From Eretmocerus hayati (lineage: Eukaryota; Arthropoda; Insecta; Hymenoptera; Aphelinidae): 64,000 bases of DNA. This document shows, one piece after another, positions 14,110 through 31,510 of the stretch. The notes under the pieces were generated by a model. It was not told where the DNA came from. It worked only from the letters and a program-made list of their open reading frames with translations, and made no database searches. Within the stretch, counting starts at the first letter, position 1; each line of letters begins with the position of its first letter. Both the position numbers and the translations under genes were made by a program. Location of the stretch: NCBI GenBank assembly GCA_029851415.1, contig CM056742.1, positions 144,279,121 through 144,343,120 of the forward strand, in the 5' to 3' direction.

Positions 14110-14115
14110 TTTATT
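14110..14115 (-). promoter_or_regulatory. Candidate proximal polyadenylation signal of ELAV gene
   Basis: AATAAA on the - strand, about 760 nt after the second stop codon (14,874-14,876). It is the nearest candidate I found downstream of the extended frame. Confidence 0.35.
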
Positions 14116-14380: not shown

Positions 14381-14873
14381 ATTCTTCGTAAGTCTCTCTT
14401 TCTCTCTCGCAGACTCACCAATTTCCTTCATGATTCTTCAATCAACGTCTCATCATTTGCACTCATCGTTAGCTAACAATTACCCTCAAACAGACACACT
14501 GACATACACGCGGTTCATTCATATATATAAATGTATATATATATTTCTCTCTGCATTATTCTCTCTCTTTGTAATTTTATATAATAATATTCATATTAAT
14601 AATAATATTTGTTTGTATCACCGCTGCTCAGCTGTGCGCACTGCCCTCGCGGTCTCTGGCTGCGCTCCGCGTCAAGAAATATTGGCGAAGTTACAGCGCG
14701 CGACCGGAAGTGCGAGCGCGCTCAAGCTGTATGTAGAACGGAGTTTGTGCGCGCGCGCCTGAGCCCTCGCTGGAGCGAATACTGTTGCTTGGTTGTATAT
14801 TTTTTCTCTCATAAGTTGAGAAAAAGTGGGCCCGATCTCATTAGCTAATTTAAGCCTGCCGGGTACGCTAGAT

Positions 14874-15452
14874 CTATGCCTTGTTGTGCAGAACTTTCTT
14901 GGAGGACTTGGGACCAGAGTTGGGCATCAGACCCAGACCATTACCATTATGGTGGTGGTAGTTGTTAGAACGACCGCCACCACCACCCCCATTGGACCCT
15001 GAGCGCGACTGCTGATGGGCCTTGCCGGTCACGTGTTGCTGGGCCCGCTGAGCCGCTGCAAGGGCTGCCGCGGCCCCTGGCAAAAGCCATCGATTCAGGC
15101 CCCCCAGGCCCGGGGCCTGATGGTTTGACAACTGCTGCTGCTGCTGTTGTTGCTGTAGGGCGGTGGCCCTTTGAAGCCAAGCTGGCTGGTTCGAATGAGC
15201 TCTGCCGATGTGTGGTCCCGAAGAGGCCCTCCCCAAGTGCTGGGCCTTACCACTGGCGGTGGACAGCTGTAGCAAGGCGGCCGTAGCGTTGGCACGCTTC
15301 CCTGAGGCCGTTGCAGCGGCTGCGGCCGCGATGATCTGCTGTAGGCTGCTCTGGGAGGAGATATCGGACCCGGCAAACGGACCCAGAGAACGGGCCTGAT
15401 GATGGTGGGAATGAAGCTGCTGCTGCAGCGGGTAGAGCGAGCCTTGCTCGTC
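14874..15452 (-). CDS. elavl2: In-frame C-terminal extension after the UAG (192 aa, Q/A/H/G-rich)
   Basis: Directly after the RRM3 UAG, in the same frame, 192 codons run without a stop to UAG at 14,876-14,874. The peptide begins DEQGSLYPLQQQLHSHHHQA. It continues through an Ala run, a Q8 run, an Ala-rich segment and a G6 run with SNNYHHHNGNG, and ends PKSSKKVLHNKA. The Q and G runs use mixed synonymous codons (CAA/CAG, GGT/GGC/GGG), as expected under protein-level selection. GC content is high throughout and drops right after the second stop. Openness alone is weak evidence, since other frames here are also partly open. Possible routes are stop readthrough, A-to-I editing of UAG to UGG, or an unseen splice form. 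Otherwise it is 3'UTR. Confidence 0.6.
   Translation of the reverse strand, partial: DEQGSLYPLQQQLHSHHHQARSLGPFAGSDISSQSSLQQIIAAAAAATASGKRANATAALLQLSTASGKAQHLGRASSGPHIGRAHSNQPAWLQRATALQQQQQQQQLSNHQAPGLGGLNRWLLPGAAAALAAAQRAQQHVTGKAHQQSRSGSNGGGGGGRSNNYHHHNGNGLGLMPNSGPKSSKKVLHNKA
15438..15450 (-). promoter_or_regulatory. GC hairpin just 3' of the UAG
   Basis: In the mRNA sense, UAG GA is followed by CGAGC AAG GCUCG, a perfect 5-bp stem with a 3-nt loop starting two bases after the stop codon. Structures soon after a stop can promote readthrough in insects; that role here is inference. Confidence 0.45.

Positions 15453-31510
<16,058 letters not shown>

What the first reader, a model, noticed from the sequence alone, without database searches (positions are those of the whole stretch)
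14874..15455. ELAV gene has a 192-codon in-frame extension beyond its UAG stop
The canonical ELAV C-terminus ([13 protein letters not shown]) is followed in the same frame by a long Gln/Ala/His/Gly-rich frame ending at a second UAG. The Q8 and G6 runs use mixed synonymous codons, and GC content falls right after the second stop. This suggests a long isoform (about 529 aa) carrying a low-complexity tail that might drive condensation or splicing regulation. I am not aware of a described C-terminal tail of this type in ELAV/Hu proteins.
Basis: partly seen in the sequence, partly recalled or inferred. Interest (0 to 1): 0.9.

Follow-up and report, generated by a model that had tools for sequence, protein, structure and literature searches.

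The report
ELAV gene with possible readthrough tail
In a wasp-like insect, the gene for the nerve-cell RNA-binding protein ELAV is followed, straight after its normal stop signal, by 192 further readable codons that look like a floppy glutamine- and alanine-rich tail, probably made when ribosomes now and then read past the stop, as they do in many other insect genes.

Summary
On the minus strand the last ELAV exon (RRM3) ends where nearly all listed ELAV proteins end (114 of 120 have at most 8 residues after VLQVSFKT), and the same frame then stays open for exactly 192 codons to a second TAG. One detail fails: GC does not simply fall after the second stop. The tail is A/Q/G/S/H-rich, basic and cysteine-free, with low model confidence that suggests disorder. 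The open frame is unlikely by chance (1 of 2000 shuffles of the 3' region; 15 of 18,922 stop-to-stop intervals in pieces of the same genome). Codon evidence is mixed, and my frame model performs badly on low-complexity coding DNA. Three capped protein searches showed no protein with the tail; readthrough predicts that, but so does a non-coding tail. Best explanation: functional UAG stop-codon readthrough giving a long ELAV isoform, a new member of a known insect phenomenon. The closest precedent is Drosophila vvl/dfr (UAG read as Gln, disordered Q/H/A-rich tail); a vvl-class gene in this same genome has a similar layout. A functionless open frame, in-frame exonic-intron splicing and stop-codon editing remain possible. 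No related insect DNA could be reached, so conservation is untested.

The parts
15456..15777 (-). Last coding exon of the ELAV/fne/elavl2 gene: RRM3 and canonical C-terminus [10 protein letters not shown]; acceptor CAG|G, first exon base 15777
   Evidence: tblastn 100% over 108 aa to Trichogramma kaykai ELAV; Pfam RRM_1 E 2.5e-23; acceptor listed
15453..15455 (-). First (canonical) stop codon TAG, context GCC GCG TAG GAC GAG
   Evidence: 114 of 120 listed ELAV proteins have at most 8 aa after VLQVSFKT
14877..15452 (-). 192-codon in-frame second ORF: Ala/Gln/Gly/Ser/His-rich, 16 K+R, 3 D+E, no Cys
   Evidence: low model confidence
14874..14876 (-). Second stop codon TAG, followed at once by further stops in the same frame
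15432..15456 (-). 10-bp hairpin with the first UAG in its stem (GUAGG-A-CGAGC-AAG-GCUCG-C-UCUAC); not exceptional for this GC-rich region
   Evidence: 29-nt piece -11.9 kcal/mol, z -2.55, 5 of 200 shuffles as stable; 25-nt window ranks 28 of 1154 local windows
15418..15425 (-). CAGCAGCA 8-mer 30 nt from the first base of the stop (the commonest 8-mer in Drosophila and Anopheles readthrough regions); three more overlapping copies start 309, 312 and 315 nt from it
   Evidence: the paper's statement from PMC5100048 section 12
15423..15488 (-). Hypothetical in-frame exonic intron (66 nt, CAG|GTCAGC ... CTGCAG|CAG) that would remove the stop; variants from the same donor end before acceptors 15395 (93 nt) and 15350 (138 nt); higher-scoring pairs from donor 15614 (219 and 264 nt) would remove more of RRM3
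   Evidence: scores from a recalled consensus matrix, all phase 0
23816..24074 (-). Upstream exon: RRM2 second half and linker
   Evidence: tblastn; edges from predicted splice sites
27463..27616 (-). Upstream exon: RRM2 first half
   Evidence: tblastn; edges from predicted splice sites
28058..28161 (-). Upstream exon: RRM1 second half
   Evidence: tblastn; edges from predicted splice sites
31174..31369 (-). First coding exon found: [12 protein letters not shown]... and RRM1 first half
   Evidence: tblastn; donor
14110..14115 (-). First AATAAA downstream of the second stop (variant motifs AATATA at 14801 and TATAAA at 14581 lie nearer); none of the five motifs scanned lies between the two stops

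Best explanation
The tail is a functional stop-codon-readthrough extension. Most ribosomes stop at the UAG after [10 protein letters not shown] and make the normal three-RRM ELAV of about 337 aa. A minority decode the UAG with a near-cognate tRNA (most likely Gln, as shown for Drosophila dfr) and add 192 residues, giving a protein of about 530 aa. The tail is probably disordered; it is basic and Ala/Gln/Gly/Ser/His-rich. It lies directly behind RRM3, the part reported to act in ELAV multimerisation, so its most likely effect is to alter how ELAV complexes assemble on U-rich RNA, perhaps most in neurons, where readthrough reporters in flies are highest. Shown here: the open frame, its position after a stop shared with other ELAV proteins, a non-random codon make-up and the composition. 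Inferred: readthrough itself, its rate, the inserted residue, the neuronal bias and every function.
For: Stop position shared: 120 of 120 listed ELAVs have VLQVSFKT and 114 of 120 have at most 8 aa after it (the best 120 of 2358 hits). 192 open codons against 3 and 4 stops in the other sense frames. 1 of 2000 shuffles of the 3' region and 15 of 18,922 genomic stop-to-stop intervals are as long. Mixed synonymous codons in neighbouring positions, 0 of 2000 shuffles as many. Frame 0 preferred over the next sense frame by 26.6, 15.6 and 18.0 nats with three training sets (7, 32 and 2 of 2000 shuffles as high). No Cys codon in frame 0 against 7 and 4 in the other sense frames. No poly(A) signal of five scanned between the stops. 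Precedents: 353 Anopheles and 333 Drosophila catalogued readthrough regions (PMC5100048), 851 candidates in bumblebees with at least 306 estimated functional (PMC7826183), and dfr UAG read as Gln with a disordered Q/H/A-rich tail (PMC8417969). The POU class III gene of this same genome has TAG-C followed by 79 codons of Q/H-rich frame. PTC readthrough reporters in fly are highest in neurons (PMC7244557).
Against: Amino-acid conservation could not be tested: no related insect DNA was reachable. The stop context UAG-G is not the favoured UGA-C, and the hairpin at the stop is not exceptional (rank 28 of 1154). Low-complexity flanks inside homeobox reading frames of the same genome score badly with my frame model (1 of 7 positive; the vvl-like first ORF's end scores 0.0), so its positive score for the tail is weak evidence. 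26 of 117 GC-rich genomic windows score at least as high, 18 of them with stops in their best frame. In the first training set the antisense frame scored nearly as high (-787.1 against -784.3), though it holds 6 stops. Synonymous codon choice does not fit the genome's usage better than base composition does (LLR -12.8). The lag-3 codon-position test is weak (106 of 2000 shuffles as high). The tail's own composition gives an open frame in 68 of 2000 shuffles. Low model confidence may reflect a lack of homologues in the alignment as much as disorder.
Confidence: 0.55

Rival explanations
1. The second ORF is not translated to any purpose: it is GC-rich 3' UTR that happens to be open, built partly of decayed CAG/GCN repeats, or a formerly coding tail.
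For: GC-rich frames stay open easily: 68 of 2000 shuffles of the tail itself. Other frames of the tail are open for 118, 105 and 93 codons. An imperfect trinucleotide repeat is present. Lag-3 matches by codon position do not differ clearly from shuffles (106 of 2000 as high). Synonymous choice gives no support. UAG-G is a weak readthrough context. No protein with the tail was seen.
Against: 1 of 2000 shuffles of the 3' region and 15 of 18,922 genomic intervals reach this length. Adjacent synonymous but non-identical codons exceed all 2000 shuffles. Stops appear immediately after the second TAG.
Confidence: 0.27
2. The tail is reached by splicing: an exonic intron of a multiple of three bases that contains the stop is removed in some transcripts, replacing the last part of RRM3 by the tail.
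For: Donor CAG|GTCAGC at 15488 scores 6.9, within the range (2.4-10.0) of this gene's presumed donors; in-phase acceptors at 15422, 15395 and 15350 score 5.2, 7.6 and 7.0; donor 15614 scores 8.5 (recalled consensus matrix). The bee gene is heavily alternatively spliced (PMC8553928).
Against: It would delete at least [11 protein letters not shown], the end of the last RRM3 strand, which is almost invariant in a 14-sequence alignment. Q-rich frames create phase-0 CAG acceptors by themselves. No such isoform was seen in three protein searches, which were capped and cannot exclude one.
Confidence: 0.11
3. ADAR edits the UAG to UIG in the neuronal transcript, so that it is read as Trp.
For: The UAG lies in the stem of a 10-bp hairpin, and ADAR is active in insect neurons (recalled).
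Against: The hairpin is short and not exceptional. No title in the one listing searched points to stop recoding of ELAV.
Confidence: 0.04
4. An assembly artefact puts a stop inside a longer ELAV reading frame.
For: The sequence comes from a single assembly.
Against: The stop position is shared with ELAV proteins of Hymenoptera and other insects.
Confidence: 0.03

Closest known systems
[quoted passage not shown]
   Same: UAG first stop; long in-frame second ORF (286 aa in fly, 192 here); low-complexity tail rich in Gln, His, Ala, Ser, Asn, predicted disordered in fly
   Different: A transcription factor, intronless, UAG-C context and a predicted stem-loop; readthrough shown by mass spectrometry, antibody and CRISPR. 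None of that is shown for ELAV here.
Conserved insect readthrough genes (Drosophila, Anopheles: PMC5100048; Bombus: PMC7826183)
   Same: Second ORF in frame 0; CAGCAGCA 8-mer present
   Different: Those were defined by PhyloCSF on many species; here one genome only. The word elav does not occur in the main texts searched; supplementary tables could not be read.
Honeybee elavl2, Drosophila fne/elav/Rbp9 and vertebrate Hu proteins
   Same: Three RRMs, matching exons and alternative small exons, same C-terminus and stop position
   Different: No C-terminal tail of this size seen among the 120 listed proteins; 6 of 120 (aphid group or unnamed contigs) have a short alternative C-terminus.
Ala/Gln-rich N-terminal region of Drosophila ELAV (recalled)
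   Same: A low-complexity Ala/Gln-rich segment attached to the same RRM core
   Different: N-terminal and not made by readthrough (recalled; one search found 0 papers)

Membership tests
ELAV/Hu (fne/elavl2) RNA-binding proteins | Three RRMs with near-identity to insect ELAV | tested here: met
   tblastn pieces to Trichogramma kaykai ELAV: 100% (RRM3), 100%, 97%, 85% and 84%, the last two including intron-edge residues; RRM_1 in Pfam for RRM3, the only RRM scanned
ELAV/Hu (fne/elavl2) RNA-binding proteins | Canonical C-terminus ending shortly after SFKTNK | tested here: met
Insect stop-codon-readthrough genes | Long second ORF in frame 0 directly after the annotated stop | tested here: met
   192 codons
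Insect stop-codon-readthrough genes | Amino-acid-level conservation of the second ORF and of the same stop codon across species | not testable with these tools
   No relative DNA found in two collections; own genome has no relatives on hand
Insect stop-codon-readthrough genes | Single-genome coding signal in frame 0 | tested here: inconclusive
   Positive frame preference, but the model fails on low-complexity coding flanks and synonymous choice is negative
Insect stop-codon-readthrough genes | Leaky context (TGA and C favoured) or structure after the stop | tested here: not met
   UAG-G; hairpin unexceptional. [quoted passage not shown]
Insect stop-codon-readthrough genes | Translation past the stop (footprints, peptides, antibody) | not testable with these tools
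   No expression data on hand
Exonic intron (exitron) | In-frame GT-AG segment containing the stop and spliced in some transcripts | tested here: inconclusive
   Sites exist; no spliced isoform seen among proteins in capped searches

The most novel reading that the evidence does not exclude
The single ELAV gene of this insect makes a neuron-enriched long form by regulated UAG readthrough. The disordered basic Ala/Gln tail behind RRM3 would tune how ELAV multimers or condensates form on RNA, so that translational recoding, not only the alternative splicing known in bees, would diversify the sole ELAV/Hu protein.
Probability: 0.25. Interest if true: 0.75.

Novelty: new member of a known kind. 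Interest (0 to 1): 0.5.

Why it matters
ELAV is a standard neuronal RNA-binding protein of insects, and in bees a single ELAV/Hu gene is needed for learning and memory (PMC8553928). If the ELAV gene here also makes a long disordered form by readthrough, a splicing and 3'-end regulator would be tuned by translation termination, which in fly reporters is leakiest in neurons. It would also make it testable whether readthrough tails alter RNA-protein assembly. If the tail is not translated, it is a clean example of how a GC-rich 3' UTR can mimic coding sequence.

Tried and rejected

Protein relatives of the tail: none seen in three searches; 3811 candidates of 105-336 aa, none at E<=1e-3; exon plus tail, 7994 candidates scored, 2358 hits, of which the best 120 were listed; all 120 cover 34-36% of the query, that is RRM3 (the top one, a fish ELAV, has its RRM3 doubled, which probably explains its higher score); 7988 candidates of 292-928 aa scored against the tail plus the last ten RRM3-exon residues, none at E<=10. 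These searches miss unannotated tails by design.

Stop-codon hairpin as a readthrough or editing signal: found, but rank 28 of 1154 local windows, so not used as evidence. Rfam: one match far below its gathering score, not in the tail. Pfam: one weak FA_hydroxylase match to the tail, E 0.032 and below the cut-off, dismissed as composition.

Codon-model tests: the first version trained on exons with a few extra intron-edge bases. One search used four minus-strand loci (L003, L004, L006, L007) in the wrong orientation; two of them entered the training set, and the numbers are not used. Corrected. One search left out L032 as a near duplicate of L031 (31 training sequences, 1926 codons; true frame best in 29 of 31 left out in turn). 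The exon edges of the low-complexity flanks used as controls were not verified. The sigma-70 scan does not apply to an insect.

Searching the own genome for copies of the tail: five tries did not complete, so paralogy or repeat origin of the tail is untested.

Full report
What is there. The gene lies on the minus strand. Exons found by tblastn with ELAV proteins, with edges from predicted splice sites, are at 31174-31369 (N-terminus, RRM1 start), 28058-28161, 27463-27616, a microexon at 25499-25537, 23816-24074, a small exon at 22641-22682, and the last coding exon 15456-15777 with RRM3. RRM3 is 100% identical over 108 aa to Trichogramma kaykai ELAV. The N-terminus [14 protein letters not shown] occurs only in proteins that names as Hymenoptera. 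The window lies in a 692-Mb assembly of 17 contigs. An RRM3 search of that assembly gives 14 matches: one of ELAV grade, the window itself (7.9e-75), and 13 far weaker (best 2.3e-12, 39%), which suggests a single ELAV gene, as reported for bees (PMC8553928).

The second ORF. After [13 protein letters not shown] (15453-15455) the same frame runs 192 codons to a second TAG at 14874-14876, and stops follow at once. The translation is 16.1% Ala, 13.5% Gln, 12.5% Gly and 11.5% Ser, with 14 His, 16 Lys+Arg, 3 Asp+Glu and no Cys. AlphaFold2 with 14 sequences gives most of RRM3 a pLDDT of about 70-90 and most of the tail below 50, with helices of low to middling confidence at Ala- and Gln-rich stretches. 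The tail had no homologues in that alignment, so low confidence is not proof of disorder.

Chance. 1 of 2000 dinucleotide shuffles of the 1179-nt 3' region has its first 192 codons open; 68 of 2000 shuffles of the tail itself do. In 19 arbitrary 10-kb pieces of the genome (one of the 20 pieces fetched lies in the window and was left out) 15 of 18,922 stop-to-stop intervals reach 192 codons, and 3 of 205 where the next 576 nt have GC of at least 0.55; some may be transposon ORFs, not checked. The other sense frames of the tail hold 3 and 4 stops and the antisense frames 6, 10 and 3.

Coding signal. For: 23 adjacent synonymous but non-identical codon pairs (shuffle mean 10.2, none of 2000 as high), and frame 0 preferred by 26.6, 15.6 and 18.0 nats over the next sense frame with three training sets (7, 32 and 2 of 2000 shuffles as high). 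With amino-acid runs masked the preference is 12.3 nats, 30 of 1000 shuffles as high. Against: 1 of 7 low-complexity flanks inside homeobox reading frames scores positive with the same model, the end of the vvl-like first ORF scores 0.0 and its second ORF -0.2, and synonymous choice in the tail gives -12.8. The lag-3 test is weak (106 of 2000), and 26 of 117 GC-rich genomic windows score at least as high, 18 of them with stops in their best frame. I read this as moderate, not decisive, support for coding.

Not an error. The stop is where ELAV proteins end: 120 of 120 listed proteins carry VLQVSFKT, and 6 of 120, all aphid-group or unnamed contigs, have more than 8 residues after it (the list is the best 120 of 2358 hits and includes one fish and one springtail). 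The stop position is therefore probably ancestral and the tail lies outside the usual protein.

No tail seen in protein databases. Three searches showed no protein with it: the tail alone, exon plus tail (where all 120 listed hits cover 34-36% of the query, that is RRM3), and candidates of 292-928 aa scored against the tail with the last ten RRM3-exon residues. Annotation normally ends a protein at the stop, so readthrough tails would be missed. A spliced isoform in a species with deep RNA-seq would more likely have been annotated, which weighs somewhat against splicing. The same absence would follow if the tail were not coding.

Mechanism. Insects use stop-codon readthrough widely. PMC5100048 (passages and section 12 seen) catalogues 353 Anopheles and 333 Drosophila readthrough regions and estimates more. 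It finds CAGCAGCA the commonest 8-mer in those regions (present in 35.3% of the fly and 23.5% of the mosquito regions), and this tail has it 30 nt after the first base of the stop and again at 309-315 nt. PMC7826183 (passages) reports 851 candidates in bumblebees, at least 306 estimated functional; elav does not occur in its main text and the supplement could not be read. PMC8417969 (passages and sections 5 and 6) shows UAG readthrough of dfr with Gln inserted and a 286-aa low-complexity tail predicted disordered. PMC7244557 (passages) shows PTC readthrough reporters highest in fly neurons. PMC3840789 (term search only) does not contain elav, fne or Rbp9. PMC8553928 (passages) on bee elavl2 does not contain the words readthrough, stop codon or C-terminal. 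A role of RRM3 in ELAV multimerisation is taken from a title in a reference list (Toba and White 2008, seen).

A control in the same genome. The POU gene at C3:113182243 is class III by its best named solved relative (POU3F1), hence vvl/dfr-like. It ends TAG-CGC and is followed in frame by 79 codons rich in Gln and His, a second TAG, and 107 more codons. The layout resembles the proven fly case, although the paper's non-dipteran outliers had short second ORFs and this second ORF shows no coding signal in my model. Of four other homeobox stops looked at, three Hox genes (named by recall) end in TAG with in-frame second ORFs of 26, 31 and 10 codons, and a second POU gene ends in TGA with 5. The Scr-like one shares TAG-GACGAG with ELAV. 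With so few genes this is only suggestive.

Rivals. An exonic intron is possible on paper: donor 15488 with acceptors 15422, 15395 or 15350, or the stronger donor 15614 with the last two, all multiples of three (scores from a recalled consensus). It would cut into RRM3, and no such isoform was seen. The UAG lies in a 10-bp hairpin, which could suit ADAR editing, but the hairpin ranks only 28 of 1154 windows. A functionless open frame cannot be excluded without relatives.

Literature on ELAV readthrough. Ten listings were searched: (one search listed 20 of 52 papers, 17 of 18, one search found none, the others listed all that matched). None of the titles, or of the passages I opened, describes a readthrough or C-terminal tail of an ELAV/Hu protein. 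The library holds open-licence papers only, so this is not proof of absence.

Verdict. Observation confirmed. The readthrough reading is the most likely at about 0.55, a new member of a known kind. Decisive evidence (conservation, footprints, peptides) was out of reach.

Noticed in passing
L049:204-443 (G000 C3:113182603-113182842): The vvl/dfr-like POU class III gene of the same genome ends TAG-C and continues in frame for 79 Q/H-rich codons, then a second TAG and a 107-codon third frame: a possible counterpart of the proven fly readthrough.
   Followed up: partly
L044, L046, L048: Three Hox genes (Scr-, Ubx- and abd-A-like, named by recall) end in TAG with in-frame second ORFs of 26, 31 and 10 codons; the Scr-like stop context TAG-GACGAG equals that of ELAV.
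   Followed up: partly
P0061, P0067, P0078, P0098, P0099, P0104: ELAVs of aphids, an adelgid and a phylloxera, and of two unnamed contigs, have an alternative short C-terminus after SFKTNK (for example GKGDASSLLMSLADSLTDC), unlike the other listed insects.
   Followed up: no
window 25499-25537 and 22641-22682 (-): Small exons matching alternative ELAV exons of other insects ([14 protein letters not shown] and [15 protein letters not shown]).
   Followed up: partly
L003 and L004: Two similar RRM exons on different chromosomes (about 13 of 75 residues differ; eIF3g-like by recall): a possible duplicate gene.
   Followed up: no
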